A model generated the notes under the pieces. That model ran no database searches and was not told where the DNA came from. It worked only from the letters and a program-made list of their open reading frames with translations. 64,000 nt of DNA, taken from the NCBI GenBank assembly GCA_013115145.1, contig JAAPAO010000050.1, positions 38,784 to 102,783 of the forward strand, read 5' to 3'. Shown one piece after another: positions 7,145 through 62,200 of the stretch (its first letter is position 1; the number at the start of each line of letters is the position of its first letter). This stretch comes from Perkinsus chesapeaki. Taxonomy: Eukaryota > Perkinsozoa > Perkinsida > Perkinsidae. Both the position numbers and the translations under genes were made by a program.

Positions 7145-10100
7145 CTACAAACCCAACTCGGCCCTCAGCTCCCCAGAGACCCTCTGCATCTGAGCTAGCG
7201 TACCCGTGGTGATTCTGATGAAACCTGGGAATCTTCCGTGGATGTCCCTGAAGAAATGAAATCAAGCATCGCCATATAGAGCCCTAGTAGAACAAATACA
7301 CGATGTACTTATAACGCTATGCCGACAGATGCTTTAGCACTGAGATTGGTGAAGCCATGCTATAAACTGCTTAGGTACATAATTAAAGCCTTACACTCTT
7401 CTGTCAAGCATTATTAAAAGCAGATTCGAGTTTCCCTTCAATTTGTAAATATAATATTAAATTAACTATATAACATATACACTGCGACTGGTCAAATTCT
7501 CATCAAGGGTGTAAGAACCAACGAGTTCCCCAAGGATATGTTCCAAATACGTCTACGCTCCAAGTTTCAGAGCCAAACTCCTTATCGGTAATTAAGAAAG
7601 CTGGGCAGAATCGGTCTGGTGGTATAATCCTTCTCTCACAGCTACAATTCATCTTATTGCACGATAAATACCTATTTATCGATCAAATCGAGTATCTCCA
7701 GTGAATGCTTTACCGAGCATGCCACAGAGCGACACGGAAGGGTAGGAAAACTACGTCACGTCTCAGGCTGCTGCTTGCCCGACGCCCCGAAGAAAATGCC
7801 CCTGCCAAGATTCGAACCCACGCCCTTCTACTACCTCAAAAATATGTCCCTCTTAGTCATCCTTTCGACTATATCCACCGGTGACACGCCCTCAGGCATC
7901 TTTACACACAGGAAATTGCCGCCACCTGCCTTCGCCTCGAGCCCCGCCTTCTGCAGATCCTCCACAAGCCAGTCACGAGCCTCGCAGACCTCCTTGGCAT
8001 ACGCCATATAAAAATCACGATTCTTGAGTGCCTCCGATGCGGCCAACTGTGCCAGCATGTTCACCGACTTGGTGTTATATAATTTTTTCATCTCTAAACA
8101 GACAAATATATCTTTTTGCTCGCATGCACACATCGACCTACCTCCGATAAGATCTTCATGAGCCATCAGGAACCCAATTCGGAGCGCCGCCAAGCCGAAA
8201 CATTTCGAAAACGTGCGAGTGACGATGAGATTCGGCAACTTCTGGACAAGACTAGCTGACGACGGCAATCTCGCAAACTCGTGATACGCTTCATCTGACA
8301 GTAAAACACAAACCTGAATGCTCTCCCGAGCTGTAGGGGACACCACAGAGTCCCCTGCCTAAGAAATTGTCGATCCAATACCGCTAAGTTATCACACTAC
8401 CAATCCTGACTGGTAATATGCCAATTCACCCTTGCCTGCCGAAACTGCTCGTGCTTGCACCGTCGAAGATCAAGTAGGATACAAGCGGCATTTTGCGAGC
8501 GTCAGAGTTTCGCGGCTAAGCAAAGCTGATAGTTCTACGTCACAAAACGGTAATCGAAGTTGTACTCCTCAGCGAGTCGCGGGATAAACTCTCTGAACTG
8601 GGGGGGGAGAGGAATTGATCAACAAACTAGAAGAACAGTTCGCTTCTGGTTAGGGTTTTCGTTAGTGAAACTGAGGAAAATCATATTCTCTTGGACGGTC
8701 TCCTATTAACGTCACGATTTCCTTCCAATTCAAAGACTATCATTTTCACCCTTCTTACCGGCAATAATAACCCTTCCAGGATTCTCCTTGCAAACCTTCT
8801 CTATGAAATCAGGATGCCATTCCGTACCTGTCACGCGCCACGAAACTCTGCTATCTATCACACAGTTGTCGCCTTACCAGTCGGATTGTTCGGGGATATC
8901 AAATAAACCACCTTCGGGTCCACCTCGGCGATTTTTCCCCTCAACTCATCTGAGCAAGAACATTCTCATCTTCCCTAGCTTGGCCAACTTTCCCACTTTC
9001 ATCGTTCTTGAACGGATCCTTCAACTCCATTTTCACATGTTGGGCGTGACAGCCATCTATAAAAATACCAACCTGAATCACAGCACACTTCCGGCGGCGC
9101 CTCAGTGACATAGAATATATGCTCTCTGCTTTCTCTTAGACCAGTCCGCCGGACTGGACCAGTCCGGACTAAGTCCGGAAGTTCCCCCGCCGAGTAGCCA
9201 TGCACTCCCTTATGTTGAAGGGGGCAAAAAAGTTACAGAAATTCCATCGAAAATTTTTTCCGGTAAGATATTTTAACAAACCTATGCAGCCATTCTCGGT
9301 TTGTCCATCACAGCTGTCATTGGCGAAAGACATTCGGCTGCCCGACAAACCTCACACTATTCCCACACAGATTGCTATTTGATAGCGACGCCGACCTCTT
9401 CGATAAAATGCACGAATCTCCGAATTGAATTAGCAAGCAGTAGAATCCTTTTATTACTACCTGGGGATAGCTCGGTTGAGGGACCAAAGCCTTGTCGCCG
9501 GGAGCCAGGAACGTATCCATGATCAAACGAAGACCGTCGTCGCTGAGGGAGCAGAATTGTTGACTACATCTATGCTATGGAAGGAAAACACTTCAAACAC
9601 TTAAGCGCACAACTCACGGGCATATTTATCCCTCCGGGAAGATACCTCCGCAAAAGCAAGAAGACTTATTTTATTGATATATATAATATAGGATATAGAA
9701 CTAGTAATATAATAACACTAATACTACATCCGTAAGACTAACGTAAGCCGCTATGACGTCCAAGGAAGTAGTCTATATCCTGTTATCGAGAAGCAGTGCT
9801 ATCGACCTATTAATAGAGCAAGGAGGATACGATAGTTGCTTTGGTATTATACATAATACATGATTAATATGATATTTTAATTTTAATTTCCAACCCTCCC
9901 CCCAGCACTACCTTCCATTATTAACAAGAATATGCTTCCTGTTTAGATTAACATGCTTGGTAATCTCCTCCATACAAGCATCACCGCCCAAGCTAGGATA
10001 CCACGGCAAAGTTAGACGACCATCCTGCGACTGCAGGAAGGATAGTAACCTATTCGTTACAGCCGCCGGAGGAGCCACTGTGGCCTGAGGGATTATTGAT

Positions 10101-14246: not shown

Positions 14247-18480
<4,234 letters not shown>

Positions 18481-20848: not shown

Positions 20849-21573
20849 ATGCAGTCAGCTATGATACACCTTTTGACCGGAATTCTTTTGACATGCTCTT
20901 TATGCACCATGAGGGAACTTAAGCTTCAAGATATTGAGAATATCGCTAGGTATGGAAGTCCACCCATCGTCTTATCCGGATCCCGTTTTCCGTGCACTGC
21001 TCTTCGGACTTTGTGTAATCGCTGAAAACAGTGATCCAGCCTTTGTCCATCGGATGGACTCCATCCGGGCTATAAGTTGCGTTCTCAGGTACAATGCCGG
21101 GCCATTCGTTACCCTCGGAGGTACAGTATCGCAGTTGGGAATCAAGTATTCGTAGCTTTACTTTAGGGGCCTGTTATGATAAGCCCATCGGAAAATGCTC
21201 ATTCAACGATACTACTGGGCGCGTGGAAGGATGTCATTGTTTGGAACCGGCGTTCGTCGCGTTCACACAGGTAGCTTTCTAGAACCATTTACCTGCTATT
21301 CTCTACAGTACCATAAATACTTTCAGGAGAAGACTGGTGATATCTCGGTTATTTGCACTGAAATATGTGATCCAGGGACGTGTCCTAAGGCTCCAAAAAA
21401 GGCTGGCGAGTGTGTGCCAACGTCGCTGCTGCCCGCTTGTCTAGTGACTTGCGTGAACGATAACGTGAGTGAAATGATGAAGTGTGTTACATTGTGTTGA
21501 GTGTCAGGACTGTCTCGATACGGCCTTCTGTAATCCGTTAGGAGATACAGGCATTTGTATGTACCACCCTTAG
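20849..21573 (+). CDS. secreted 13-cysteine protein, copy A
   Basis: First member of a four-gene family in this window, of unknown function. Five exons: 20849-20949 (signal peptide, then LKLQDIEN), 21089-21120 (YNAGPF), 21167-21270 (CYDKPIGKC, then GCHC), 21327-21464 (ICTEICDPGTCPKAPKKAGEC) and 21508-21573 (DCLDTAFC, CMYHP, stop). Total 441 nt and 146 residues. Exon sizes 2 and 3 (32 and 104 nt) match the other copies exactly and all phases agree. There are 13 mature cysteines. This is the most divergent copy, 17 kb from the others. Secretion is inferred from the hydrophobic N-terminus. Confidence 0.82.
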
Positions 21574-23235: not shown

Positions 23236-23335
23236 GAGGTATAGTTGGGTTGTTATTAACAACCCAACTATACCTCTCAAAGCTCAGCTACCTCTCAGTA
23301 CTCAAAGCTATTAACAACTTGTTAATAGCTTTGAG
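23236..23335. repeat. two long 1-nt-spacer palindromes
   Basis: 23236-23276 has 20-nt perfect arms around one T. 23301-23335 has 17-nt perfect arms around one C (left arm CTCAAAGCTATTAACAA). They are 24 bp apart and share CTCAAAGCT-like sequence in the gap. Confidence 0.95.
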
Positions 23336-23344
23336 TGCCATCAA

Positions 23345-30847: not shown

Positions 30848-30877
30848 TATTTTTTGACAAAAAGAGAAACACAGCAA

Positions 30878-33989: not shown

Positions 33990-34073
33990 ATGAGATGACT
34001 CATCTCATGGAAGGATGGACATCATTGAGGAATTAAGGAAGGACCTCATCTGAGATGAAGTCCTTCCTTAATT
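33990..34073. repeat. two 1-nt-spacer palindromes between convergent gene ends
   Basis: ATGAGATGA-C-TCATCTCAT (33990-34008), and 34031-34073 with 21-nt arms, one mismatch, around a single G. They lie between the stop of the TPR-like gene and the start of the cyclic-nucleotide-fold gene. Confidence 0.93.
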
Positions 34074-40917: not shown

Positions 40918-41633
40918 ATGTCCGGTATGATCTTCCTAATGTACATCATGGGCACCAAGGGAGAACTGAGGGTACAAGATATTGGAAATAGGTAGGAAAC
41001 CTACCGTGGGTAGGAAACCACGTTTGCTAATGGGGCGAGGTAGGAAACGAAGACTCCGTTATCATCCTAGCGGCTAGGACCTAGCCAGATTGCAGACTTT
41101 AGTCCCTTCTTCCTGTATTTGCATCACTCGCTTGCATAACTTGTCAGATACAATCCAGTCTCGATCTATGGTCATCAAGGTGGAGTTTTTCGTTTTCGTT
41201 GCGAATGTGTATGCCGTCAAAAGGTTCATGTTATGAGAAACCCTTCGGCACGTGCATCTATAACCAATCCGATGGCTATGTATACGGGTGTTCCTGCTCG
41301 GCACCAGCTGGTGTGATTTACGCTCTGGTAGTTTTCTAGCCCGGACTGAAGGCATTCACCTGATCTATCTTCCAGACCAAAGATTATGAAATTGACGTGG
41401 TCGCTTGTACTGATGATTGTGATGGAGATTCCTGTCCTAATGCACCTAAAGGGACGGGCAGTTGCGACCCAGTGGGATATGTGGAAACAGCTTGCCTGAT
41501 TAACTGTAAGGATGACAAAGTAAGAAAATATGATTATGAACCCGATCGATGCCTTACACGGTAGGACTGCCTTGAAACGGCCATCTGCTACGACGGGGGA
41601 GGACCTTCTGGCGTATGTATGTACCGTCCCTAG
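40918..41633 (+). CDS. secreted 13-cysteine protein, copy C
   Basis: Five exons: 40918-40991, 41148-41179, 41224-41327, 41376-41519, 41565-41633. Total 423 nt and 140 residues. The first exon is 15 nt shorter than in copies B and D, which shortens the leader (MSGMIFLMYIMGTKG). The body keeps CYEKPFGTCIYN, GCSCSAPA, ACTDDCDGDSCPNAPKGTG, CLINCKDD, DCLETAICYDGGG and CMYRP. The weak leader may reduce secretion; the rest is intact. Closest relative is copy D, including about 350 bp of 3' flank. Confidence 0.85.
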
Positions 41634-43430
41634 CTCTGCTCATAACTTGACGATGAGTGGTTAGCACAGTCCAAGATTATCCGGCACAATGTGGGTAATT
41701 TCACATGGCCTATTTCTCTTTCTGCGCGTTTAACGTGCCGTAGCCAGTCTCGACTAGGTCCCTAATCGTTTATCGTTAATCATTCTATACCATCACAATC
41801 GGGCCGATTGAGAGGCCGAGTGAATTGGTTTCAGGGTTTGCCTAACCCTTGTGGTTCTTTTGTTGTTGAGTTGTCAATAACTTCCCCGCTACTGAGTCAA
41901 ATTTCTCTAGATGAAGTCGGCCATCACCCGACAGTAATTCGACTGTGATTTTCCCTATGGTATTCTGATTTCGTCTCCGAACCTCTGGTAACTCATCTTG
42001 AGGTACGGACTCCTATGGTAGGAGTTACTAACCCCTATAATTCAGAGAAACCATTTAGTAGTATTGGAGATTGATCGAATTTTTCGCTGAAGAGTTGTTC
42101 CAATTTTATGCCAAATCGAAAGGTTTGGGGATTAATTTAATCCATATTTCATATGAAAATATGGAATTCGTTTCACAGCCTGTGGAGTTTTCCTGAGGAA
42201 AACCTGTGAATCCTGTGAATCACAGGATCTAATTTTCCTCAGGAAAACTGTTCCCCCCTCGACCGGCAAGCGAGGGATGTCACAACTTGCTCTGCTCCCA
42301 CTCGATATTATCGAGTGAGCCTGATAGCAAATATCATCGCTTGCCGAGTCGGTAACGCTAAGCGTTTGCTCATACCACTGATATAAGCCAACACTCACGG
42401 TTATAGGCTTCGTATAGGCTGTATGGTTCACGACGGTATCTTGATAGAATATCAAATTGATATTATCAATGATATTATATCAGTGATATAATATCAAGAT
42501 ACGAAAACCATATACAATATGGAGCAATGTGCCAGGAATGAGCATTGAAAGCAGGAGTCAGTATGCTATAGAGCGCTAGACTAGCGCCGCTAGTCGGATG
42601 GATCATTGAAAGTGCCACTCCCTGAGGACGTCGCCTTCCCCTATTCGCTGCTACGCCTCAATCGGCGCTCCTACGGATATGATATCGTCGCTGAACGGTT
42701 TGGTCTGAACCCAGCGAACAGGAGCTAGCGTCTCGGTGTGCATCGCCTTATTTTGTCTAGCTTCTGCTTTATTAAGTTCGCGTCGCCAACTTGGCGATTC
42801 GGACCCACAACACTTGCGGTTAATCCATGCCGTGGATTCCACGGTGGTAACCCATCCGACCCAGTACAACTACGTCCAGTGGCCAGCTGGTCCATTCTTA
42901 TTTTTTTCATTAGTGATGAGCTAATGAGTCATAATGACTCAGTCATTAGTAATTGCTCATTACTCTTTCTGCGCAGGTCTTTATTTCATAGAGTGAGTTC
43001 TCGGACGAACTTGAGTGAGCCAGCGCAGCAGCACGAAATGGCTGTTGGCGGGCGAGGTTTGCTAAGCGAGATTCCAGAACGTTCCAGGAGTGCCGCAGCT
43101 GGCAGGGGGGGCTCGTTGTTCGGTACGGCCCTGCGGAGAAAGCTGAAGCAGGACTATATACACATCTTTACTCTAGCGTTGGAGAGGACGCTCACTCCTC
43201 AATAGCGACTGGTCAGTGGCAGCCGGCAGTCAGCTGACAATACACTCAAAAGATAGGTCATATTAAAATAAATAAAACTTAACGTAATTCGTATATGATT
43301 ACACTCGAATCGAGTGACTCGATCCACTAGCTTCATAAACGGGACAAGCTTGAGTGGGACTGTTTACACAGGCACAATGGGACATCAAGTAACACAAACT
43401 TAGGACGTATCGGCCGCATCCAAAGGACCT
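41634..43430. other. 3' flank of copy C, palindrome cluster, unassigned ORF
   Basis: 41643-41990 matches the 3' flank of copy D. 42180-42500 is dense in palindromes: GTTTTCCT-G-AGGAAAAC, TTTTCCT-C-AGGAAAA, CACTCGATA-T-TATCGAGTG (42299-42317), ATTGATA-T-TATCAAT and a 13-nt-arm palindrome at 42470-42496, the last two enclosed by a longer GTATCTTGATA repeat. A plus frame ending at 43205 has a protein-like C-terminus (LFGTALRRKLKQDYIHIF) but no clear start. Confidence 0.6.
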
Positions 43431-43760: not shown

Positions 43761-44535
43761 CAGTGGTAGCCTACCACTGGTAGGTTCGATTTATACTCCG
43801 TACCGGAGAACCAGGCCACCCCTAAGCAACGCTGATGCGTAGAAGCGTAGGAAAGATCTTTTGAGAATCTTGAAGACTCTCGAAATACAAGCGTGTGCTT
43901 GCAAGCTGGTCTTTTCTGACCATTATGATGAATACAACAGATAGTTTGTTACAGATTAATTCACAGATTCGCTCGTGGAGCCAATCATCGAAAACCCACT
44001 ACCAACCGCAAAGAATGTGTTGTTGACAGTGTGTCACACAGTTCAGCGGGTCTATATTGTTGTCTCTATAATGCTAAGTTAGCATTGCTTACTTCCCAGA
44101 ATATTGCGGCACGGCTCGGCACCCGCTCTCCAACTCTCTGCCTGATTCTCGATGTACGAGGCACTTATTTCAAAACCTGCAGCTCTGGTCTAACCAGAGC
44201 TGAGAACCCCGTGTCACCGAAGGACGCCTACAGTGAGGTTCTTACTGCACCAGGCTCCAGCAGATCCTGCAGCTGTATGTTTTATCTGTTTCTGATGATC
44301 GCTCCGGAAGTATGATTCTGGGCCAGAATCATACTTCCGGAGCGATGCAGTTGCGGCCGTGCTCGTCTGACAATGTGTACCTTACAAAGGTATGAAATTG
44401 TTGATCGACTGCATAATACGAGATATGATGCCATGCAGTAGATGACTCAAGTAGGAGAAAAATAAGAGCAAGTTCGAATTATAGATGGGCACGTTCCGTT
44501 CTCCGGTGTTGAGTACGGTACGGGCCGTACCGTAC
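43761..44535. repeat. palindrome series
   Basis: CAGTGGTAG-C-CTACCACTG (43761-43779) chained with CCTACCA-C-TGGTAGG (43770-43784); AATGCTAA-G-TTAGCATT (44070-44086); a 24-nt-arm perfect palindrome around one G at 44298-44346; and GTACGGTACGG around one G at 44513-44535. Each has exactly one unpaired central base. The interval has no supported gene. Confidence 0.93.
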
Positions 44536-45072
44536 GGCGTACGGCGAGTTTATCGAGGTGTTACGGAGTGCGGTACGGAGTACGGAGATGGGACATTAAG
44601 TTCACCTCTGGTGGCCAATGAACGGTCGAGGAGAGTAGAGATTGATAAGAGAGATATCCCGGACCATTTAAACTTTTATTTCTCTGAACTATTTACTTTC
44701 ATTCTTTTCGTTACTTATTGCACGCGCACCAATGCGGAAAGAATGCACATGCGTGCATAATGTTCCGAACATTGCCAGCGAGGACACTATGTTGGTTCTG
44801 GGTACTTGGCACTTGACTCGAACACATTCCAACGCTTAAATAACACTCCGCACCGTACTCCATACTGGCCGTACCCTGACGGATGCTCAAGTATAGTTCG
44901 AATTCTATTTTCGAATCGTGCTGATATCGCTCTGTTCCACCGGGGAGTTCCGGCGGGAACACCAAAGGAACATGCGTCGCCCCCGCGACGCTTTTTTTCA
45001 TTGCCCGGATATTTGAACCTCTCCCGAAGCCTTAGTTCCAAACATAACCAACTAACATGGCTATCTCTCGCC

Positions 45073-45125
45073 TACTAATGTACATCGTGATCATTGTCTG
45101 ACAATGATCACGATGTACATTAGTA
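45073..45125. repeat. 26-nt-arm perfect palindrome with 1-nt centre
   Basis: The longest example in the window: 53 bp, perfect apart from one central T at 45099. Its left arm lies inside a short ATG frame with a hydrophobic start (MAISRLLMYIVIIV), and the first base after the left arm begins the stop codon. Confidence 0.96.
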
Positions 45126-45180
45126 TACATATACTCACTATATACTGACTGTACATAGTGACTCACTATTACCTACGCAG

Positions 45181-45293: not shown

Positions 45294-46139
45294 CACAGCA
45301 CTGCTGAGACTATCATTCAGAGCAGCGCCTGCTGCAAAGGTGCACTATGTACACTTGCTTCAATGGACGGCGCTCAGCCAGTGGAGGTCTCATTCTCAAT
45401 ATCTCATTTCATAGTCTCGCCCTCAAGCCAAACCCTTCCTAGAGAAGCGCTTCCCATAATAGTGTTCTTAACAGTACACGTTGTTCATTCAATGAACTCC
45501 GTTGTTATATAACTCGACGAGACTTTTCAAGTATTATGAGCCGTTGTGTGTTGAGTTCGGCCGTTGAATGCCCAGTTGACATGGTTGCGTCCTTCCGCCG
45601 TAAGTTAACAGCCACTCGCGCGTCGATAGTGCGACGTTGGACATTCGTATGAGAAATTGATGACTTATAGTGTGAGTTTCATACTATAAAACTATAGAAT
45701 TTACAGCATGACATTCACGCCGCGGGCAATACCAAAGTCACTTTGGCAAAGTGTCCTCAAGGATCTCAACCCCAACGGAAATGAATCTCTCGAGTGCCTC
45801 GACCTTCACGAGCCGATAGTATCGGCCCGATACTCAATAAACACAGCAGAGAGGCTAGTGCACGGGTTAATCACCTGGTACCAGCGGTTGAGTTGAGTCG
45901 ACCAGACACGACCAAGGTTTGGTTACCAAATACTTCGACGCATTAGCGGTACAAGATTGACATCGAAAATCTATGGAGGAATGAGGCACCGACGGACGGT
46001 TACCGACCCCGGCAAGAACCGTGGCCCCGCCAAATACTTTGATTTCCGACTTAGGTCGTAGACTCCACCGCTCGCAGCTCATCCCATGCATCGTTCACCG
46101 AGCATTGGGATAGCCGACCACAGATCATTGAAAATGTCT

Positions 46140-48000
46140 GCGGGCCGCCGATGTATCTTTCTAATACCTGCTCTGGGGACAGCCTCCCCCACAACAGTCA
46201 AATGGGAATTGTTTTTCCGTGTTTCGCGCCGTCAGGATGCGGGAACACGTTCGGAGGGGAGTTGATAACTATTTCCATCTTCTTTACGCCCGACAGACCT
46301 CTCGATCTGATAGTCTATCAATGATAGGTCAAGTGGACCCTTTGTCAAACACGCTCATCAGGCGGCATACAGCCTACAGGGCGCAAGGATCCGCACATTT
46401 GGCGCACGTCACTATGGCGCACAACAAGCTCTATTCCTGTCAGTAGACGATCACAGAATGATCTGTGGGCATAGCGTTTGCGTTCAAGCGATCTCGTTGA
46501 CATGATTCAGGGAGAGGAATCTTCGATGACGAGTCCTAGGCCCTTGAGTCCTCACTATCGTCCCCGGAATCTTCCGATTGCCAAAAGTAGTTGGGGACAT
46601 GGAGTGAACTAGGAATGGCTCACCGCACAGCCCGCACAAGAAATGTATTCTGGTTAAGTGGATATCTTATCCGGATAAGTGTGGTATTTCGGATACGAGG
46701 TTCCGAGTTGATTTTTCAATCACAGGTGTAGCAGTCTGAAAAGAAGTTCTCCTCTATAACCCGGTGGTCAAACATACAAGAGTGGCTTGGAAAGATGCGT
46801 ATCCTCTTAGGCCTTACGGCAGGGAGTGTTGCAAGGACTCGTCGACAGCATGGAGCATTGCTTAAGCTTAGTAAGCTTAGCTTACATTATCCGAGTCCAC
46901 TCCGATCACTTCCAAACCTTCATCAACTCTATACTCGCTTAGCCATGTACGGTATCATCGGCATGATCTCCCTCGTGTGCATCCTGGGCACTAGTGGAGA
47001 ACTAAGGGTGCAAGATATTGTGAATGGATCGAGGTAGGAAATAGAAAGTCCGTCATAAGAGAGAGATTCTAATCCTTCCTTCCTGTACATTCGGGCTTCA
47101 ACATGAAACTCTCATGAGCTACACGTGTCCAGCTTATGTGAATTCTTATTGGCAGGTACAATCCAGTCTGGTTTCGTGCTCCCCAAGGTGAAGTATTTGA
47201 CTCCGATAGTGCATACGTCGTTATTAGGCTCATGTTATGAGAAGCCCATCGGCAAGTGTGTCTATAACAAAGATGCTCATGAGTTAGAAGGATGTCAGTG
47301 CGCGGCACCGGCTCTCGTAGCATACGCTCTGGTGAGTTCAGCGCAGACTAGTGCCCCTTACCGAATTTTTCAGACCGACGATGATGACGTTGATGTCGTC
47401 GTTTGCACTGTCCAGTGTGGTGGAAATCCATGTCCCAACGCACCTAAAGGGACGGGCAGCTGCAACGCAGTGGGCTCCTTATCATTGTGCATGATCAACT
47501 GTAAGGACGACAAAGTAAGAAAACGTGTTTATTGGCCCAATAAATGCGTAGCATGATAGGACTGTCCTGAAACGGCCGTCTGCTACAACTGGGGAGGACC
47601 TTCCAGCAGCTGTTTGTACCGTCCCTAGCTCTGCTAATAACTTGACGATGAGCGCTCAGCCCAATCCCAGACTATCCGGGAGTCCCGGACCGGGACAATG
47701 TGGGTCTTCTTAGATGGCCCATTCCTCTTTCTGCGCGCCTAACGTGCCTTAGCCAGTCTCGACTAGAACCCTAGTCGTTTATCACTAATCATTTCATACT
47801 CTCCACAAGCAGCTTTCCTCGCCTAGGTGGCTAGGGTGGAAAGGGCGATTCCAAGGTTTGCCTAATACCTGTGGGTCTTTTATTGTTGAGTTGTCAATAA
47901 CATTCACGATCCTGAGTCAAAACGCCTCTTAGAATGGATTTCACATGGGCATTGGACTATAAACTCACACACACGCGCCTCTAGATGAAATCGACCACCA
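46140..48000. repeat. segmental duplicate of about 40.15-42.0 kb
   Basis: The region around copy D matches the region around copy C in order on both sides of the gene: upstream (GGGGACAGC...; AAGCTCTATTC/AAGCTTTGTTTC; GGTTAAGTGG), the gene itself, and downstream (TAGCTCTGCT.ATAACTTGACGATGAG; AACGTGCC.TAGCCAGTCTCGACTAG; TTGTTGAGTTGTCAATAAC). Indels between the copies often coincide with palindromes. Confidence 0.85.
46945..47628 (+). CDS. secreted 13-cysteine protein, copy D
   Basis: Best-defined copy. Exons 46945-47033, 47156-47187, 47228-47331, 47374-47514, 47560-47628. Total 435 nt and 144 residues, all introns GT-AG and 40-125 nt. Signal peptide MYGIIGMISLVCILGTSG, then ELRVQDI shared with C. 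Mature motifs: CYEKPIGKCVYN, GCQCAAPA, VCTVQCGGNPCPNAPKGTG, CMINCKDD, DCPETAVCYNWGG and CLYRP. Each cysteine pair or motif sits in its own exon. TTAGCC precedes the ATG. No known domain is recognised. Confidence 0.9.
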
Positions 48001-48213
48001 TTCGAGTCAGACATTTCATCTTCTGACTTCCTCCAAGAGCTTCTGGCAACTCCTTTGAGTCAGTGCCATAGAAAGGTACTCCATCTGGATTTAGTCTGTA
48101 CAACGGCTTGATAAAAGCCAGTTTGTCCAACCGTTGGATTCCAACGACCCGACAAGTGCTCATTTGACTGTGGTGTATCAAACTCAGCACATCTGGCGAC
48201 GCAGAAGAAGTTA

Positions 48214-51200
48214 TTAGTTAGCTGCAGTTTGCCTGACGTTGTCGTAGAAGGCGGCAAGAGAGCTTTCATCACAAGGGATGTCCGGAGAATTAACGGCATT
48301 ATGGAATACGTACGACATCTCTCTAGCTTCTTCAACGATTACCTGTCAAACAAGGTTGGAAATACAATGGACTGCATTCGATGAAGAAGTGCTCATGGAT
48401 CGAGCTTCCCAAAAGTGGCCCACTTTTGCCACTTCTGCCACCCATCTGGGGAGGTGAAACAGCATTATAGATCCTTTCACTATTATAATTTATAAATTGC
48501 CCTACCAGGTAGGGCCCACCTCACCTCTGGCAATCCAGCAATTTTCGCGACATGCATAGCATGGCTTTGTGGGCAGCGACCCTTCGTGAACTTATACAGG
48601 AAGGTCACTGCGCGAGTCACTGGATCTACAAGGCATGCTTGATGGTATCTAAAGTTCAGACTCTGAGCATATTATCGCATCAGAATCGAGCCCAATGTTG
48701 GAAGGTCTTACAGTGCTGTATTGGTGAGGGTATGGTCCTCGGCTAATTGATGGTAGTGTGTGGCAAACAAAGCACGGCATCCTATCTGTTCAGATACCCT
48801 TTCTAGGACAGCATGAGCGATAGCTGCACCGTCAAAAGTAGATGTCCCGCGACCTGATGTCAACAGGTAGTATCAATAAGGTCTATGAGCCGAAGATTAG
48901 ACTCGAATTAGGTCCAGCAGGTTATTAGAATAGGTTACGAGACCTTACCAAGTTCATCGATGACTGCTAATGAGTGTTTAGTGGCATGTTGAAGGACAGC
49001 TCCGGTTTCTTCGAGTTCGATCAGGAAAGTACTTTTATTTTCAAGAATGGAGTCTCGAGCACCGATCCTCGTGAATATGCGATCCACTGGGGTCAAATGG
49101 AACCTGACATACCGGAGTTGTATTTGAAAATCACCAAACAAAAACGCATGCTGGAGAAGAAATAACACTATCCTTACGACGAGGCTGGAACGCGACATCC
49201 AAGTTGCGCGATAATGACAGCTGTGGCGCTGAGGCGAAGCACTGTACCTACGAAAGACATGCAAAACAAGGCTGGCTGCCATCTGAGCTGCAGAGTCAGC
49301 TGCGAGAGAGACAAAAATAGTTCTTAGTCGTACTTTTGCCTCCCATGTTGGGGCCGGTAACGAGGAGGGTAGTCGGACCATTATTATTGCCCATTTCAAC
49401 AGTGTTAGCGACGAACTCTCTACCCGATCGAGAGAGGATGGCCTCTTGAACCTGAATTTACGGAATAACGTCACACGACGTCCTTACAAGCGCCTACGGG
49501 ATGTCTGCCGTTTTGCAAGTTTAGAACGGGAACATCGGATTCGTCTGGATCCACGATACATGGCCGGCACATCGGCCCAGAACCGGGTTGGGAAGCCTCC
49601 GAAAGCGACAGAAGACAGTCTAGTGTTGCCAGTCTGTTAACCTGGGAATTACCAACCCTTTGAGGGCACTCGAGCAACACGCCGGCTCTCACCATTTGTT
49701 GCAGACGTATCGTGTGTTTGTGAAAGTCTTTGAAGAGCTGAGCCATAAAAGGATAAAGACAATCCTTCATTTGCTCTTCAGTTTTCTCCAGCTCATCAGT
49801 CATATCTCTAATCTAATCAGATTAACAGATACCCAAACCACGCAGCACCGGCGGTTCACCTCTTGAGTGAGGAGCCTGACATAGCCTTTCCTCGTACTTG
49901 ACACCTCCAAGCCGTGTTCTTCGGTATTACGTGGGACACTACGCTCAGGAACCTCTATCTCATACCTACCATGCTCCCGTAAACAGTTGAGATTTCGCGG
50001 CCTTACCTGTATTTTACGCTGACGTATTTTACATCAGATGCTTTACAATCCTTCAAGTTTTCACGGCAAATAACTTTAAGCTCCTTTTGCAGATCTGCCT
50101 CAATACTCGCTATCTTAGCTCTCGCTTCGTCGTATGTCGGATAGCAACCTACGAGCCTTAATGGCAGCACTCTCGGGGAATAGGGGAAAAGCAACTTCCC
50201 AACGGACGGCAAGTGACACTGATCCTACTCAAGCTTCATTTTTGTACACAAAGAACATACTTTGATCTTCAAAAGATTTGTTCTAGTGAACCTCGATGGT
50301 TATCTACTTACACTAGACCATATAAAATGCCCAGTCCTGTTTAGTGGAATCTCGTCACATAAATTTCACGGGTCAGATTTCAGTGGAGTACAAAACTCTG
50401 CCCAGGGCGGTACAGGCAGAGGTAATCCTTTTTGTAAAGTTATACTCGCCCTCGCATAAGAATACACTTTCATCAGAAAATGGTGCAGTACAAACTCACA
50501 CACTCCCAGCGGTAGCGACACCTACCTGGCGCGGGAGAGTACCCGGTCGTTTCATTCCCCTGTACTCTGCTTCCCAGATCGTGAAGAATATTGTCAATAT
50601 ATCCTAGCTCTTCCGACGGAACTAGTTCATCTAGCAAAGCCGGTAATTCCGCCCCACAGTCCCGGACCTGACAAAATGTACCAAATCACATTACCACTGT
50701 AACTACTGCGTGAAGTTGAATAACGGAGAGAGCCGGTTGCATCCTTGATATCACAAGCGGGATAAGACGTACCATGGCAAGGCATTCGTCAGCCTTTTTT
50801 AGGGATGTCAATAACTCCATGAACTGTGCAATCCGGGAGGACTCAACCTGCAGCTCGCGCAGTGACAGATATAGCAACAAGTGTACGTCTCACTTCAGCG
50901 TAGAGAACGGCTTTCCTTTCCATTTGCAAACCCAATGCAAAAACTCTGTTTTGGCGTCGCTCAATGTCTGGCAGCTTACCCATCATAGACCGCAGGTCAC
51001 TGAGTGTGAAGCAATAATGCGCCAGAAAGTTTCCAGGGGAAACAAAGTTGAAAGTTGTGCATCGTTATTAACGATGCACAACTTTTTGTTCTTCTGGTTA
51101 ACGATTCGTTAACCAGTAGAACAAAAAGACGTTCACGGCTGCCAGAAAGCACCGTAGTGGGAGAAGAGCTAGGCCTTTTCTAATCATACTCAATAGCGGA

Positions 51201-54200
51201 ACCGTAATATGAACGCTTATACATGTGATGGCATATCGCCTTTTGTGGTTACTAAGCTCGGCAATGTCCGCTTATCGATTAACAGCTTTCTAGTTAGATT
51301 TCAGTATCGAGTAAATCAGTTAGAGCCTGCCGTCGGCTGCAGCAGGAATTCATGGTACGGTTCCGGATCTCGCTCGCTTGAAGAGGTCAAAGGCTAACGG
51401 GCAGGAGCAGGATTTACGCCTTCCATGATTTATTAGTGCATGGAAAACGTGAACGCCGTACTTACCGAACTAAATCTCCTCTTTCGAGGAGCCAGTCGAC
51501 CACATCTAGCCTTCTGTCGATATCTGCCTTCCTTCTCATGGGACAGCACACCCATTGCCTCAAGAGACGCTTCCCAAATGGTGTAACCGTATGGTCCAGA
51601 TGGTCAAGTAATGAGCCCTCCACTTTCCCGTCCGTGTCTAACGAAAAGAATGAACAGCAAGCGGAGGTATTGCTCACTTCGAAGAACCTCCAACTGTTCC
51701 AAGGCATTTGCATCGAGAATCAGTCCACCACCACCCGCGTCGGCTGTTTCCAGTCTCTCCCAGGTAGCGAAGGAGGTAACCTAGATAAAGTGCAACTTTT
51801 CACAACCGGAGAAACTAACCAACTGATAACAGACTATTATTAACACTGTCAATTTAACAGTACAACACGGTTATATGATACCCGTTGCTAAGATGGTAGG
51901 TGCAGTGAGTTATGTTTTCAAACTGAAAATTTCAGTTCACACAAACTTTCGCATCCTGCGCGAAAGTTCCCCCGAATTTCAAGAATGATAATGATGAAAG
52001 TTTTGAAATTCTCCGGTTTTGCTCACAGTTTGGGCCTCAGACGCGCGGCGAGGAGATATCGACAATCGGGTCTTAATGGTCCGGTGAGGGCTGAATGGCT
52101 ATACCAAGCCTATTCGGGGATTGCAATCAGAGATGGGCACAACTGCGTATGTTACGGTCCCGTTCAGTACGAAGAACGTTGATACGACGCGCCATCGTAA
52201 CCGTATAGTAAATTCGAAGTGATGTGAGTACGGGCGCGTATTCGGATCTGAAGGTTCCACCTCGGAAGTTTTCGGGTCCTCGGGTTTATAAACCCATAAG
52301 ACGCTATTTCTCCGAAATCCTGGAGAAGACGGAGAAGCACTACGAGTGAGTCACTGGGTAAGGCTTTCTGTCTACGTCGTAGACTCTACGACTTCACGAT
52401 GAACTCTTGCCGCTGGGCTTCACTTGCCACTGGCAAGTTGCCAGGTGATTTGTCAACATGCAAATGAGTTGAGGTAAGCCTAGACAAGGTAGTAGAAGCT
52501 ACTATCTATGTGAGTGTACTTGGGTATGATCCGATAACAGTAATTGTGTGAATAGCAATGGACAGGAGCCATCGGCCACGGTTACACGCAAAGTGGACCG
52601 GTGAACGTTATCCTCGACTAGAAATTGTATCAGCAGTGGTAGAACATCACTGATGTTGTTCGCACATTATATGAATAATAACAATCGCTATTCTCCGGGA
52701 ATAATGACACCAACAGGGGCGGTGCCATGGAGGAAAGGTTGCCCCGGTAGTGCACCGACCTCTTGCATTCCCTGAGGTTTTCTGGAAGAATAAGGCGGGC
52801 TCCGTTTGATAAGATCACCCGGCTAGCACACTGCGTTGTCTGGGCTAACTACAAACTCACCAATGCTTTCGATGTGGTTGTCACCGAGTTCCGAAGAGTC
52901 ACTGGCAAAGAGGGCACTTTCGCGGCTCACAAAAAGCCCTCTGAACAGGATCCATCTATGGAGAAGATGGTATCGGAAGAGAGTACACTAGTCCTTAGTA
53001 CAGATTGCAGCTCACTGCCACCGGTAAGTCAACTGGTCGGATGAGTGTCGATCCACCCTCGATGGTCCAGATGGTTGGCTCTGATGATGAATCGTCAACG
53101 GAGGTTGGACACCAGAGAGAAACGAGGGGCAGTAAGGGGGTGGTCGCGTGAAAGTTACGGGTTGAAATCCTCGACAGCAGAGTGGCAAAGCCGATTCGGC
53201 TACCCGAAGGCGGCAAGACAGACTTATATACAATATACAAAATAACCGTCTAACCTTACAATATATTCTCAATAAATATTTTAAATATAATTACATTCTC
53301 AATAAAATATATATTCTATTACAAGTACGAGATCAAGTATAGACTATTTTCAGGTTAGACGGAGAAGCTAAAGATCTGCATAAAGCCTTGAGTTCAACGT
53401 TCTATTCCGCAGACAACAATATACTGGCCATAAATGCGTATGCGCCTCTCAAGCTCCTCAAAGATATCGAGGATTCCGTCATCGGCCAATCACTGTTCGA
53501 GTCGCTGACCGAGATTGAAAAAGTATACAATCAGTTATATTCCATGGATGTTCTCGAGGAAGCCTCGAGAAATATTGTACTTTCAAAGTGAGTGCTCATG
53601 TCGGTAGGATCCCTCGATTTGTTCGGGCCGTCAGACAGCGTTTAGAGGTCCAACAGGTATAACCTATACTTTGTGGCCTATATATTTGTGATTTAACACC
53701 GCTCTGTGAAGCCTCCTTGATCAGGCTGCAAGCTGCACTGGATGGAAATTCGCGACCCACGTTACAAATGCTGAAGCTCGTTCAGCTCAGCATGTCCTGA
53801 AGGAATAAAAAAGGTATGATTTTCTCCCATTTTCCCCTCTTCGCAGTAGGAAATCTGATATGGAGACCTTCACTAGCATGATGGTGGGCGTATTTGAGCG
53901 AAGCGAGCGAAGCAACAGTCGACTTGTCTGATGCTTAAATCATTCGTAATTGTAGAGTCTACAATGTAGACTATTGGCGTATGTAATTAAGGACTAAGCC
54001 GGGGTTCTTGCATGTCTTCCGGTTCAACTGGATGACGCCACTGTGGTGTCGCTGCCAATAACTACTCATAATTTACTACTCGTGAATCAGGACAATCGAC
54101 AACTCAACTAAATACAACAAATGCATTTCCGTAGACAAAACTGTTGTGCAACATGACTTAAATCATCAAAGTTCAATGCCTCCATTTAGCAGATTTTCTG

Positions 54201-57200
54201 ACGAAATCGACTGCACATAGACTCAAAGTCTTAGAGCGGGACTCAGTCCCGAGCGACTTATTATTAAAAATCAACCGATCTTGGGACAGCTACATTAGTT
54301 GATGCTTGTGCCATGAGGCGAATGGTTCGGCACTCCCGGCTCGTGAGGAAACTACCCTTTCTCTGTCAAAAATCAGGACTTTTTCGCCAAATTTCCCAGA
54401 CCTCCATAAATCTGGGAACGGAAATCTGAGGAAATTTGGAAACCCGAGAACCCTGGAAGACAGGCGTGTAGGCCAACCTGAACATTACCCGAACCATTTG
54501 CTGTATGTACTCGGAGCATACAGCAATGGTACCTGGAACTGAAGAGTTCTGTACTAAAGTCTTTCTGAATGGCACAAGCTACTATCGAGAAGACGCTCGA
54601 TACTGAGGAAGGACAACGCTTCCGCGTATAATAGCCAATACATCGAGTGCCACCTTGAGAAGAGAGATTTCAATGGCTCCGAAGCCCTAGGGGGGACGTA
54701 AATCATGGAGTGAGACGTATAAGTTGAGTATCTCATAAGCTAGATGTAGAAGAAGGTTATTATCAATATTATTACATCTCTTGAGTATGAGCAGCCCAGG
54801 AACGCTGGCTCGCTAGTAGCGCTGATCTGAGCCCAGTTCAATATACCGTCGGTATAATACCGATAACCAGCCACTGTCACATGAACCCACATAATTCAGC
54901 TGATGATCAGATTGACATGCAGAACGCTCAGCTGAGGTAAGCGTTCTACATATCAATGAAGAAACTGCGTGTATGGTGCTACTTCATGTAAAAAAAACTC
55001 ACATGAGTTTATGGGAATGGTTTACACTGGCAACCAAGTTTTCTCTGAAAACTTTTCAGAAATCCTAACTGTTTGTTGGTTAAAGAACTAACCAGCGGTG
55101 AGCCTAACTTCGCCGTACGACAAGCGGGTGGCCCGCTGCGGGCCGATAGTCCACAGTTTGGACCCCAAACCCTCCCACCGCAAGGAAGGTGGTAGAGTAG
55201 CAGAGAGGAAAGACACGCCAATCTATGGTGGAGATCTGATCGGGTCGATTATCGGGACGCGCCGCGTGTCCGCGTGCCACACGCGGAACCGAGATGCCGC
55301 GGAGCACGGCGGCTTTTTTGTGGGCGATAAGAGAAACCTTTGCCCTCAGCATTGCCTCCGCGGAAGAAAGAGATAATTGGAACAGTTTCTATCTTTTCTT
55401 GATCCAAAATCCGCTAGGCGCACACTTGAAGGCGCAACTCGTTCATGAAAGTTTCGAATTTACACAGAATCAGACGAACGAATATCTCCCAAGACGATAC
55501 CGTGTTCTCACCGATTCATAGAGCATCGCTTGTCGAAGGTAGGAAAGGATAGCTCCACATGCCTTCTGGACCGGAGACGGCTCGGCGGTCTGAAATCGCG
55601 AGGCCACGATCTGCTGAACGAGTTGTTGAGACTTACCAGATCGCGCGCCGCATCCGAGGGAGGGTCCCAGTGCTGCCACTGGGTGACAGACGGATGAACC
55701 GCCAGGCTCTGGATGAGCCGATTCACTGCTGGTGGAATCGATTCTGAAAACACGTTCAAAACACCTTCATCGACTTATTGAATAAAAGTTTGATTACAAA
55801 ACCACTTTGGAGCATCGTGGAAATGGCTGAGCCGGCAAGTTGGCGTTTCAAAACGAAATCTCCCCACGACTCACTCTTGTCTGCTAGCAGCTCTCTCGGT
55901 TGTAGCGTGATGAGAATTGTACGTAATAACTGTCTATCGGGCTTGTCAGCGAACCAGCCATATTTGAAGGTAGATGTCGCACAGTCCACAACACAGCACC
56001 CGAACGAAAGACGTTCACCAAATGTTCCTGTAGAAGACACAAGACGGTCTCCCTTCAGAGGAGTCCCCTGAGCGTTCTGGCTACCTTGCGTTGTAGATTC
56101 ATCCGCGAACCAGAGAGCCATGAGATAATTGGGTTGAGCCGGTGATGGAGAGTTCTTCAGCATCGCTTCGTGAGTCAGCGTTCCCGCAGAGTGTGCCTGA
56201 AGCATCGATAACAGTGATTCCGGTCCGGAATTCAAGTCATTCCGGAATTTCCGGAATGACTTGAATCCACAAACTTGCGTTGTGAGAGTTTCTAGTGTAG
56301 GGATTTCTGTAACAGAAAACCCACTGCAATATGCAATGGCAGTCAAAGACGGCTGCGACAGCTATCGATAATGCGATAACTCACCTGACATGCTTCCCGT
56401 TTAACAACAGCATCGCTTTTCCTGCCCTGGTCCTTTTTCATCTCTCCAACTCTCTCCACTTGCTCCACCACGACTGTTCGGAATCCGGCATTCACCAGCA
56501 TGCTGCTATATTCGTAGAGAGATACCTTCGACAGGGAGAAAATGAATCATTTGCTTGCTCTCATAGGTCATTCGAAATGGCCAATAAAACAAGCTCTATC
56601 TACAAACATTCTTCTTCATAGGTCATTCGAAATGGCCAATAAAACAAGCTCTATCTACAAACATTCTTCTTCATAGGTCATTCGAAATGGCCAATAAAAC
56701 AAGCTCTATCCGTAATCATTGCTAAGGAATGGTCCGGTGGGTGGGTAGGTGCTGAGCCCACTTCATATAATACATGCAGGAGACGAAGATCCAGGGACAA
56801 TCTCGCAAGATAGGGAGAAATTCTCCTGGAGAAATCGCCAAGCCACTATGGCGTTGAGCAGAAGCTTTTATCGAGGCTGGAAAGAAGCTGGAATATCTGT
56901 GAACCTTTTCGTGACTAAGGCTTCATCAGCTGAGCGCGAGTCCAAACTCAGTGTAAAATACACCCTCTGATGCTCCGAAGTTCACTGATAAATCTAAATT
57001 CAACGAGATTTCCCCTACGATACGAAGGTCTACGATGTTCGTCCTGCCTCGACGACGCGTGAAGACCAACATAGAGAGCTCACCTCTGGAAATCCAACAT
57101 GGGGCTTCTTGTTATTCCCCATCCAGCGCAGATTACACGCAGCTTGCGCGAACACAGCGTCATAATAGAAAATCTCGTAGAATTTGCCGACTTTAAAAAG

Positions 57201-59286: not shown

Positions 59287-62200
59287 TTAGTCAGAAGCCA
59301 CATTAACCGGGACATCGCGGTAGGTCCGGCGGCGAACCATCGCTGTTGTTTTGCCGCCGCCATACGTCATTGTCCTCAAAAACTCCTTAGCTTTCTCCAT
59401 CTCTTTCACCCTGCGCTTGCTGTCCCACCCTTTCCGATCACCGATAATACTCACAATCTGAAATTCAATAAATTCGGCCGTCTACCCCACCCGCCTACCT
59501 CCGGCAAGATAGCCTTCGTCGCCACAGGATCAACAAACGCCATCCGGGTCCTGTACGCGATGACATCCACCACTGACTCTGCCATCTCTCTGTCAACTGC
59601 CCAGAGCAGCTCCGTACGAAGGAAGCTCTGACATGACACAGCGGAGTAATGCATTCCATTTTATCATGCGAAGGCAAATATTTTCCAGCAAAGTTAGTAT
59701 TGTACAAACACTTCTTGCTCTCCTCCTAGGAACATCAGAATCGGTACCGAAGCGCCCCACAGCCGCACAAGATGGCTACCTGTCTGGGGAGCAGCGGGCT
59801 CAATGTGCTCGTGGTCTGACCGAACTCACATAAGTCTGGTGCGTACGTGCCATAAGACTTGGTGAGATGAACCGCATCTACAACGGTAGTGGTGTATGCC
59901 GACATGACAGCGATTTTTTCATACCATCCAAATCAACACCGTAGCTCCGATTCAGCTCCATCGCCATGCGGTCGGCGAGGACGTCGAAGTCGTATCCGTG
60001 TCCCACAGAGAACCTAAAATAAATCATGCCATCGTCGCCCAACTAAGATGTCATATTGAGTATATTTGTACGTTGAAAAGCATGCAGACTATCTGCCCCT
60101 TACAGGCAGGAGGAGCGTGCAAGGAGAAGGAGGAGTCGAGGTAATTATCTATCCCAAAGCATGATACCATTGCGACGGAGAGGCAATATGGTGTATGCGG
60201 AAAGGTCGGCCCTCCGTGGGGGCCTTTATCAAGATCTTTTATAATTTACCCTAAAGGAGCACTTTACATCTCATAAAGCAGCCCCGTTATTGCTGGGTGA
60301 ATTCACCATTCAAACCTTGGTGAGTTGAACTCACCGTATGACGCTCTGGTCCGGCATAGGCCAGAATAACGCCTCGGCCACACACGGCACAACTTTCAGC
60401 GCGTATCTCTAGTACCCATTTCATCTCATCTACCCTAATATTACTTTCCACCGTGGCTGCCCAGCAGCGCAAGTCTGAATGTCCTGCATCCATGCTTCGC
60501 CGAAACTCTTCCATGATGGTGCTCCAACGCTTTGTTCACACAATCTTCTGCCATTAACCTACACAGCAGCCTCTTCCACAACAACTCAACCCGAATGCTC
60601 TCTACCTGCAAGTGGTCCACTTTCCACCCATAATGCTCACTAAACCTGTCTTGCTGTCGATAACGACTTCGTGATCACGAGACATCTGCAACACTAGCAG
60701 TTAACCGCGAACTCACAGAGGGACGTCGGATTTCCCCAGAAGGAACGCATTCGACGTAACCTTAGTGGTCAAGAGGAATGTATTCGACGTAACCTTAGTG
60801 GTCAAGAGGAATGTATTTTATATCGAAATGTCCATTTCAGGAACACATTTTGCTCCCCAAGGAACATCATTCTATGAGCCCAGATGCTCCCCTAATTGAA
60901 GCCCTTCTCCTACCTTGCTGGTGTCTGCCGCTTTGGGATCTCTAACCAGAGGCCTAAGGCCACTCCAGGCAGCAGTGATGTCCTATGAAAACCGAAGAGC
61001 CTCGCTATCACGGACTGCAGGCTACTTCCCGAATATCGTCTTTGGTGAGGCTCAGATATTTCACGCTCTCTTCGACTATAAAGTCCAATTCAGCAGTGCT
61101 CGGCTTGGGAAGGGCCGTCAGGTCACTTTTAACATCAGTCGTACCAACCACCGTATTCCCTAAACACTAGTTTAATCGACCCAACTTAACAGCCCGCCTT
61201 GCGTGGTAAGGTTGATAAGATACCCTCACAAGCACCAGCGTGGAACAACGAGCAGCGGAGGAAGCCTCTGATACTTGTATGACGGGGAAACCTAGCACCC
61301 GGGGAGAGCTTAACTCGCACTCCAAAAAAATCGGCAAAAATTACTGTACTGAAAATTACTTGCAAATTCTTAAATATGTACTCAATGATTGTGCAGAGTC
61401 GAACTATCCTACTGCGAGAGCCTGTGGAACAAGGATCGCATCTTGAATGTACATTGGTATTACCAATATTATTTATATACTAGTAGTATATAAATAATAA
61501 TGAAGTAGAGAATTCTTCCGAGATTTTCTTCCATGCAAACGCGCAGAGAATAATGTAAATAACAAAGTAATAATGTGGTACTATAATACTACCACATTAT
61601 TGTTCCTTCCCGAACGATTTATCAAACTAACTATTAATTAACGCATCGGATACAAAGTCCCCCATGGTACATCTGAGAGTTACACTCATCAGTATCATCA
61701 CAACTCTAAAGCTCCCTCAAACTGCGAGCTGTGCTCCAAGGCACGACCGAAGTTCACGGCATCCCACATCTGACTACTTTACGAGAATTTTCCAAATCAA
61801 TTTGGCAATTCCGGCACACTCAAAAATTTCGCTCGCCCACATATCAGTAACAAGGCATGAAACGGTTGTAAGATTTTGACAAGTGAGTCTCACCTACAAT
61901 GTGCGTAACATACCCGAGAATGAGCCCTTAACCCGTTCCCATGGTGGAGTTATGATACAATTTGAAAATATTGTACGTTTATTTGGAGAACTGTATCATA
62001 TCGCTGTATATGCTTCCATATGATCCTTCAGCATTTTATCTTATCCCAAGCAACATTGCAGCGCCTCCACTTACCCTCCCAAGGCAGATAGAACAGCACT
62101 CTCCCGTCTGCAGTTTCGGGGATGAGCATCCCACATGCCGGTGACGAATATGACCTAACCAACAACGATCTAGCCATACAGAAATATGCTTTCAGAAGGT

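What the first reader, a model, noticed from the sequence alone, without database searches (positions are those of the whole stretch)
9141..61601. Genome-wide style of palindrome: inverted copies around exactly one base
I count at least 18 inverted repeats with arms of 9 nt or more (three with a single mismatch) whose arms are separated by precisely one nucleotide: 23236, 23301, 33990, 34031, 39700, 40320, 42299, 42470, 43761, 44298, 44513, 45073, 48410, 51051, 51083, 56230, 61467 and 61569. Arms reach 26 nt. Dozens more have 7-8 nt arms. By simple arithmetic a random 64-kb sequence should hold about 0.2 with 9-nt arms. Even-length palindromes of similar size are much rarer by eye. Those I could place lie in introns or intergenic DNA, not in supported exons. 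The fixed one-base centre argues against ordinary transposon ends and points to one recurrent mutational process, perhaps snap-back copying of a 3' end or hairpin opening and repair.
Basis: partly seen in the sequence, partly recalled or inferred. Interest (0 to 1): 0.9.

Follow-up and report, generated by a model that had tools for sequence, protein, structure and literature searches.

The report
Scars of departed hAT jumping genes
Stretches of DNA from a shellfish parasite, Perkinsus chesapeaki, are dotted with small mirror-image marks around a single base, which are most likely scars left where a hAT-type jumping gene cut itself out and the cell stitched the hairpin-shaped ends back together.

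Summary
In the window 47 palindromes with arms of 8 nt or more have a one-base centre, against 1, 2 and 4 at spacers 0, 2 and 3 and 0.8 in a Markov control. In 233,753 bases this template fits perfectly 42 times for octamers and 0-1 times for lengths 6, 7 and 9-12. T follows nTnnnnAn, the published Hermes (hAT) target. Six zigzags have an alignable repeat copy, and each has at least one with a gap of exactly 14 nt that leaves one octamer. Seven of 11 long unpaired palindromes have a partner with the same octamer. Best reading: hAT-type excision, with flanking hairpins capped by one base, opened deep and joined mostly by annealing through the target duplication. Fifteen samples imply roughly 4,000 perfect scars genome-wide, yet only five hAT remnant loci and no clear filled site were found.

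The parts
21045..21066 (.). perfect 22-nt zigzag scar, octamer GTCCATCC
26882..26903 (.). perfect zigzag scar, octamer ATCACACT
29184..29205 (.). perfect zigzag scar, octamer GGGCCAAC
38331..38367 (.). two overlapping perfect zigzags (38331, 38346), octamers GGCTTGAA and GCTTGAAC; repeated use of one site is an inference
39702..39723 (.). perfect zigzag scar, octamer CGTTCATC
40322..40343 (.). perfect zigzag scar, octamer CTCTTTGT
41065..41086 (.). perfect zigzag scar, octamer TCCTAGCC
42449..42497 (.). nested zigzags (42449 perfect; 42462 with 2 mismatches; 42469 and 42476 with 1 each)
42573..42594 (.). perfect zigzag scar, octamer GCGCTAGT
42926..42947 (.). perfect zigzag scar, octamer GAGTCATT
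43302..43323 (.). perfect zigzag scar, octamer CACTCGAT; repeat copy L041 lacks exactly 14 nt and carries CACTCGAT
43763..43784 (.). perfect zigzag scar, octamer GTGGTAGG
44517..44538 (.). perfect zigzag scar, octamer GGTACGGC; repeat copy L040 lacks exactly 14 nt (GGTACGGT); tandem array L055 holds the predicted joined string
45732..45753 (.). perfect zigzag scar, octamer CCAAAGTG
45812..45833 (.). perfect zigzag scar, octamer GCCGATAC
46864..46885 (.). perfect zigzag scar, octamer AAGCTTAC; repeat copy L028 lacks exactly 14 nt and reads TAGCTTAC
47675..47696 (.). perfect zigzag scar, octamer TCCGGGAC; window repeat copy near 41675 lacks exactly 14 nt and reads TCCGGCAC
52370..52391 (.). perfect zigzag scar, octamer GTCTACGA
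52423..52444 (.). perfect zigzag scar, octamer CTTGCCAG
53950..53971 (.). perfect zigzag scar, octamer TTGTAGAC
54842..54863 (.). perfect zigzag scar, octamer TATACCGA
23236..23336 (.). double-hairpin scar: palindromes centred at 23256 (arm 20) and 23318 (arm 18) share octamer GTTGTTAA, with filler between
51051..51128 (.). double-hairpin scar: centres 51068 and 51105 share octamer ATCGTTAA
56217..56266 (.). double-hairpin scar: centres 56224 and 56248 share octamer ATTCCGGA
61467..61601 (.). double-hairpin scar: centres 61483 and 61585 (one mismatch), octamer TATACTAC
42172..42228 (.). double-hairpin scar, octamer TTCACAGG, right centre 42219
33990..34073 (.). probable double-hairpin scar: centres 33999 and 34052 share the inner six bases AGATGA; the two outer bases do not fit, one of them at the single mismatch of the right palindrome
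   Evidence: read by eye
44759..44773 (.). probable one-sided scar: palindrome centre 44766; repeat copy L040 has 28 nt more here and its right side resembles the right arm
   Evidence: read by eye
44298..44346 (.). long one-base-centre palindrome (arm 24) without an identified partner; one-sided scar by inference
45073..45125 (.). longest palindrome (arm 26) without an identified partner; one-sided scar by inference

Best explanation
The one-base-centre palindromes are most likely scars of hAT-type transposon excision, probably made when hairpin-capped chromosome ends were opened and rejoined. Inferred steps: an element flanked by an 8-bp duplication N1..N8 is cut out; the transposase nicks one base outside the element on each side, and each flank closes into a hairpin whose cap is a single base, the complement of N8 on the left and of N1 on the right. 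A nuclease opens each hairpin some distance from its tip. Because both flanks carry the same octamer, the opened 3' overhangs are complementary over 8 nt; they anneal and are filled, giving N1..N7 + reverse complement of N1..N8 + N2..N8 (22 nt, 14 nt more than the empty site). If the overhangs are joined end to end instead, two palindromes with filler result; if one end is lost, a single palindrome remains. Shown directly: the 22-nt structure, its 8-bp unit, the nTnnnnAn bias, the 14-nt gaps in repeat copies, and double palindromes that share one octamer. Inferred: the enzyme class, the hairpins and their deep opening.
For: (1) Fixed unit: perfect templates number 42 for m=8 against 8, 1, 1, 0, 0, 0, 0 for m=5, 6, 7, 9, 10, 11, 12; the mirror control gives 0 for m=8 and 5 for m=5 (753 clean bases). 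(2) Complemented flanks: at distance 14, 50 six-mer pairs have both outer bases complemented; other distances from 8 to 30 have 0-11. (3) Target consensus: among 48 perfect octamers N2=T in 23 and N7=A in 24, both in 11 against 2.9 expected; pooled p 1.9e-7. Among 96 unpaired palindromes T at +1 in 44 (p 3e-6) and A at +6 in 49 (p 3e-8); 90 even palindromes give 24 (p 0.33) and 30 (p 0.04). nTnnnnAn is the published Hermes target (PMC10368747, PMC2803484; passages). (4) Empty sites: 132 zigzags with up to 2 mismatches were compared with the fetched loci. Leaving aside a nested site that aligns to its own reverse, 6 zigzags have a spanning copy, and for all 6 at least one copy lacks exactly 14 nt: 43302-L041, 44517-L040, 46864-L028, 47675-window 41675, L012 4184-L046 and -L045, L012 5284-L047; the octamer left matches the prediction at 8, 7, 7, 7, 6, 7 and 7 of 8 bases (L047 read by eye). 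(5) Repeat copy L045 carries its own long scar: cap C where L012 and L046 have G, about 30 nt of left flank inverted, then a second octamer copy whose first base is C where they have G (partly by eye). (6) 18 of 91 unpaired palindromes have a matching 7-base partner nearby, 12 of them with the outer base complemented, against 1.1 in a swapped control. (7) hAT domain remnants: 4 matches to PF05699 and 2 to PF14291, 5 loci in all.
Against: No filled site was found: 8-bp duplications with 10-base inverted ends (at most 1 mismatch) number 0 in the fetched sequence, and a looser scan gives 44 hits with no hAT-like end pair. hAT remnants are few; the one used as a protein query has a single match, and no convincing inverted ends were seen around four of the five loci, the fifth not being fetched. 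The simple short footprint (distance 8) shows no clear excess (6 seen), unlike Ac/Ds in yeast or plants. Two spanning comparisons at 67-69% identity have scattered gaps of 9 (46864 with a window copy) and 16 (47675 with L028). Palindrome 47536 shows no length change against two repeat copies and 2 nt against a third and does not fit, though chance supplies about 0.8 such arms; palindrome 41803 aligns to its copy too poorly to judge. Six of the 18 partners lack the complemented outer base.
Confidence: 0.88

Rival explanations
1. Excision scars of a Mutator-like (MULE) element rather than a hAT. MULEs are present and, as recalled, may also pass through flanking hairpins.
For: 9 MULE domain matches in the genome; one repeat copy with inverted ends (L038) has a 9-bp direct repeat at its borders (by eye).
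Against: Muta1 makes 8- or 9-bp duplications (21 and 39 of 60) with little or no sequence preference, and about 90% of its excisions are precise when the duplication is present (PMC5225508, passages). Here 9-bp units number 0 against 42 for 8 bp and the octamer has the nTnnnnAn bias.
Confidence: 0.05
2. Replication template switching or snap-back priming makes short inverted copies without any transposon.
For: Inverted copying is visible, and some sites are nested as if reused (42449-42497).
Against: It predicts variable lengths and spacers; the unit is 8 bp with complemented ends and a target consensus, and double palindromes share one octamer over distances up to 109 nt.
Confidence: 0.03
3. 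Developmentally programmed elimination: the assembly is a somatic genome from which transposon-derived segments are removed every generation, leaving scars.
For: Many scars, no filled sites in the sample.
Against: Decayed scars are about as common as perfect ones: 42, 37 and 41 zigzags with 0, 1 and 2 mismatches, mirror control 0, 1 and 9 (overlapping sites may be counted twice), so scars seem to be inherited and to age. No germline-soma separation is recalled for Perkinsus.
Confidence: 0.03
4. Library or assembly artefact (fold-back chimeras).
For: Raw reads were not available.
Against: Artefacts would not duplicate exactly 8 bp, complement both outer bases, follow nTnnnnAn, or match empty repeat copies.
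Confidence: 0.01

Closest known systems
Ac/Ds excision footprints in yeast, Arabidopsis and Candida albicans (PMC5873905, PMC1978519; passages)
   Same: Palindromic P-nucleotides of flanking DNA centred on the complement of the base next to the element; microhomology joining of opened hairpins.
   Different: There palindromes are mostly short (at most 3 nt in Candida; up to 20 nt in S. cerevisiae, where 47% of footprints have arms of 3 nt or more). Here the dominant product found is the full 8-nt overlap through the duplication, and short footprints show no clear excess.
Hermes, Musca domestica hAT (PMC10368747, PMC2803484, PMC6900584; passages)
   Same: 8-bp duplication with nTnnnnAn; hairpins on flanking DNA.
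   Different: No element or transposase was tied to the scars here.
Kat1, domesticated hAT transposase of Kluyveromyces lactis (PMC4763223; passages)
   Same: Makes hairpin-capped breaks on host DNA.
   Different: Acts in mating-type switching; no tamed enzyme is shown here.
mPing precise repair through duplication-derived microhomology (PMC4561436; passages)
   Same: The two duplication copies supply complementary ends that guide joining.
   Different: A Harbinger-type element modelled with staggered cuts in a 3-base duplication; its repair is mostly scarless.
Short template switches that create local inverted copies (recalled, not looked up)
   Same: Short inverted copies in a genome.
   Different: No fixed 8-bp unit or target consensus expected.

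Membership tests
hAT excision footprint | 8-bp target-site duplication | tested here: met
   42 perfect templates at 8 bp, 0-1 at 6, 7 and 9-12 bp; empty copies keep one octamer
hAT excision footprint | target consensus nTnnnnAn | tested here: met
   N2=T 23 of 48, N7=A 24 of 48; unpaired palindromes likewise
hAT excision footprint | palindrome of flanking DNA centred on the complement of the base next to the element | tested here: met
   one-base centre; both outer bases complemented at distance 14, 50 pairs against 0-11 elsewhere
hAT excision footprint | hAT transposase encoded in the genome | tested here: inconclusive
   5 remnant loci by PF05699 and PF14291; none shown intact or tied to the scars
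hAT excision footprint | resident element with inverted ends and 8-bp duplication at unexcised sites | tested here: inconclusive
   no convincing candidate in the fetched sequence, which is under 1% of the 35.4-Mb assembly; the source element stays unidentified
hAT excision footprint | hairpin intermediate | not testable with these tools
   needs biochemistry
MULE excision footprint | 8- or 9-bp duplications without sequence preference | tested here: not met
   9-bp templates 0 in 233,753 bases; clear preference
Merlin | DDE_Tnp_IS1595 transposase, 8-9 bp duplication | tested here: not met
   no PF12762 match in the assembly at E 0.001
Dada (known in P. marinus) | 6-7 bp duplication in multicopy RNA genes | tested here: not met
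   6- and 7-bp templates 1 each; no Rfam match in the window; PMC3706591 passages

The most novel reading that the evidence does not exclude
Perkinsus mends hAT-type breaks by a dominant route in which deeply opened hairpins find each other through the 8-nt complementarity that the target duplication provides, writing a self-dating 22-nt scar; thousands of such scars record a long history of jumping by elements that are now almost gone from the assembly, or by a host-tamed hAT enzyme.
Probability: 0.4. Interest if true: 0.75.

Novelty: new variant of a known kind. Interest (0 to 1): 0.62.

Why it matters
hAT excision footprints are known mostly from laboratory assays. Here they can be read from raw genome sequence as a structured 22-nt signature that gives the site, the original 8-bp target and, through mismatches among its three copies, a rough age, even where no transposon copy is found. 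The zigzag would explain why the unit is rigid while hairpin opening varies: joining through the duplication gives one product wherever the nicks fall. Zigzags with 0, 1 and 2 mismatches number 42, 37 and 41 (mirror control 0, 1 and 9), as steady formation with decay would give. Scans of other genomes with this template could reveal past hAT activity where no element survives, and Perkinsus could be used to ask how hairpin ends are opened and joined in alveolates.

Tried and rejected
Snap-back copying and template switching: rejected because of the fixed 8-bp unit. MULE, Merlin and Dada: disfavoured. Programmed elimination: disfavoured by decayed scars. The repeat at window 44480-44895 with GTTCGAAT on both sides looked like a filled hAT site, but its right border differs in another copy and it was one of 13 pairs with 9 or more of 12 end bases matching in the same scan, so it is not claimed. 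The inverted-end repeat at window 42846 has a 9-bp direct repeat in one copy (L038) and none by eye in another (L039), and is not taken as the source. Inverted ends around hAT remnants: none convincing at four loci; one exact 8-bp repeat in L021 has ends matching at only 10 of 16 bases. Rfam: no family in the window. The simple distance-8 footprint: no clear excess.

Rows dropped: L003 and L004 were left out because L021 and L015 hold the same DNA, and repeated sequences were counted once; one search left out centres within 100 bases of an end (91 of the 96). Six-mers of two letters or fewer were left out. The printed alignments were cut at 18,000 characters; one search repeats the comparison systematically.

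Papers: passages only were seen in PMC8101967, PMC10368747, PMC2803484, PMC3499496, PMC1978519, PMC6900584, PMC4763223, PMC5225508, PMC5873905, PMC4423477, PMC3706591 and PMC4561436; others only as search listings. Searches listed no paper whose title or abstract start reports such scars in Perkinsus or a genome-wide survey of this scar type; the closest is PMC4423477, a genome-wide survey of DNA transposon excisions in rice. Most subscription papers are not in the library.
Full report
What is there. The window is a 64-kb piece of a 102,783-base contig in a 35.4-Mb assembly. A protein search with part of the UGGT gene near its left end returned a 100% match named Perkinsus chesapeaki on a contig of the same length, so the organism is this parasite (of clams and oysters, as recalled). 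Sixteen of the 18 listed sites have perfect arms of 9-26 nt, the other two have one mismatch.

The order behind it. Centres lie in pairs exactly 7 nt apart: 28 pairs in the window, no other distance up to 40 nt more than 3. Most such pairs make a 22-nt zigzag: octamer T without its last base, the reverse complement of T, then T without its first base; 22 are perfect in the window. With the unit length free, 233,753 clean bases of window and sampled contigs hold 42 perfect zigzags at 8 bp, 1 each at 6 and 7, none at 9 to 12; 5 bp gives 8 with 5 in its mirror control, which is near chance. The mirror control at 8 bp gives 0.

Target consensus. In 48 perfect zigzags (22 in the window, 26 in loci L005-L025) the octamer has T at position 2 in 23 and A at position 7 in 24; both together 11 against 2.9 expected. 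The 96 unpaired palindromes show the same bias at the matching places, 44 and 49. The control of 90 even palindromes gives 24 and 30, the second slightly high (p 0.04). The pattern is nTnnnnAn, the preferred target of Hermes (PMC10368747 and PMC2803484, passages).

Empty sites. In a systematic comparison, 132 zigzags with up to 2 mismatches (window and L005-L025) were searched against the fetched loci. Apart from a nested site aligning to its own reverse, 6 zigzags have a spanning copy. Each has at least one copy with a gap of exactly 14 nt: window 43302 with L041, 44517 with L040, 46864 with L028, 47675 with the window copy near 41675, L012 4184 with L046 and L045, and L012 5284 (one mismatch) with L047. 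The octamer left matches the prediction at 8, 7, 7, 7, 6, 7 and 7 of 8 bases. In addition the tandem array L055 holds the predicted joined string for 44517 letter for letter, although BLAST did not align across it. Two further comparisons at 67-69% identity have scattered gaps of 9 and 16 and are inconclusive. The repeat copies that could be compared are those I fetched, not all in the genome.

Long palindromes. Of 91 unpaired palindromes away from sequence ends, 18 have a 7-base partner at the expected side against 1.1 in a swapped control, 12 of them with the outer base complemented. Of the 11 unpaired palindromes with arms of 12 or more, 7 have such a partner, and one more (61483) is found by the next test. 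Requiring both complemented outer bases and at least 3 P-nucleotides on both sides gives 39 cases at distance 14 and 8 at larger distances, with 1 in the uncomplemented control; the case at distance 198 may be chance. The window cases are 23256/23318, 51068/51105, 56224/56248, 61483/61585 and the pair ending at 42219. These look like two hairpins of one event, with 3 to 25 P-nucleotides, joined end to end. In L045 a further case can be set against its relatives: the cap is C where L012 and L046 have G, about 30 nt of left flank is inverted, and the second octamer copy begins with C where they have G (partly read by eye). Some unpaired palindromes with 7-8 nt arms coincide with zigzags carrying 1-2 mismatches, that is, decayed ones.

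Mechanism. hAT transposases cut the non-transferred strand first and close the flank into a hairpin (PMC6900584, passages), and in Ac/Ds footprints the palindromes are centred on the complement of the base next to the element (PMC5873905, passages). The one-base centre, the complemented outer bases and the 8-bp unit follow from that. The new point is the dominant product: if both hairpins are opened several bases from the tip, the two 3' overhangs are complementary over the octamer, because both flanks carry the same duplication, and annealing would give the 22-nt zigzag wherever the nicks fell. The short footprint without P-nucleotides (distance 8) shows no clear excess, 6 cases. The hairpins, the enzyme and the nuclease are inferred.

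How many and how old. Fifteen 10-kb samples taken by contig number (132,404 clean bases; two of them mostly masked) hold 15 perfect zigzags, 5 of them in one sample. This scales to about 4,000 in 35.4 Mb; a Poisson range worked out by hand is about 2,200-6,600, and the clustering makes the true uncertainty larger. Zigzags with 0, 1 and 2 mismatches number 42, 37 and 41 with a mirror control of 0, 1 and 9: nearly flat, as expected from steady formation and decay. At 3 mismatches it is 92 against 61, but at 4 and 5 the control exceeds the observed (440 against 360, 2,005 against 1,764), so counts beyond 2 mismatches are not used. The window is about three times richer than these samples.

What does not fit or is missing. 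No filled site was found in the fetched sequence. hAT domains are few: 4 matches to PF05699 and 2 to PF14291, 5 loci, and the one used as a protein query has a single match. The assembly may lack young repeats, or the elements may be nearly extinct, or a tamed enzyme may act. Palindrome 47536 shows no length change against two repeat copies. The pair 33999/34052 shares only the inner six bases. Palindromes 44322 and 45099 have no partner found.

Verdict. It is a new variant of a known kind of scar, notable for its number, its rigid form and the scarcity of its maker.

Noticed in passing
window 2435-6258, minus strand: UDP-glucose:glycoprotein glucosyltransferase gene (100% to P. chesapeaki FOL47_008079, 59% to P. 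olseni).
   Followed up: partly
window 48935-56361, minus strand: Pieces with MutS domains V and II, perhaps one gene.
   Followed up: no
window 39246-41901 and 46340-47921; L028: Family of diverged repeat units, 67-72% alike, with a further copy on contig C79.
   Followed up: partly
window 42846; L038, L039: About 1-kb repeat with inverted ends; L038 shows a 9-bp direct repeat GGATTCTGC at its borders, perhaps a MULE relic.
   Followed up: partly
window 44480-44895: Repeat rich in TACGG near its ends, flanked here by GTTCGAAT on both sides; not beyond chance.
   Followed up: partly
window 15003-15248, 56561-56710, 63859-64000: Tandem arrays with periods 15, 55 and 35.
   Followed up: no
window 36000-56000: Palindrome clusters are much denser here (5-16 per 4 kb) than at 4-20 kb (0-1 per 4 kb).
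   Followed up: no
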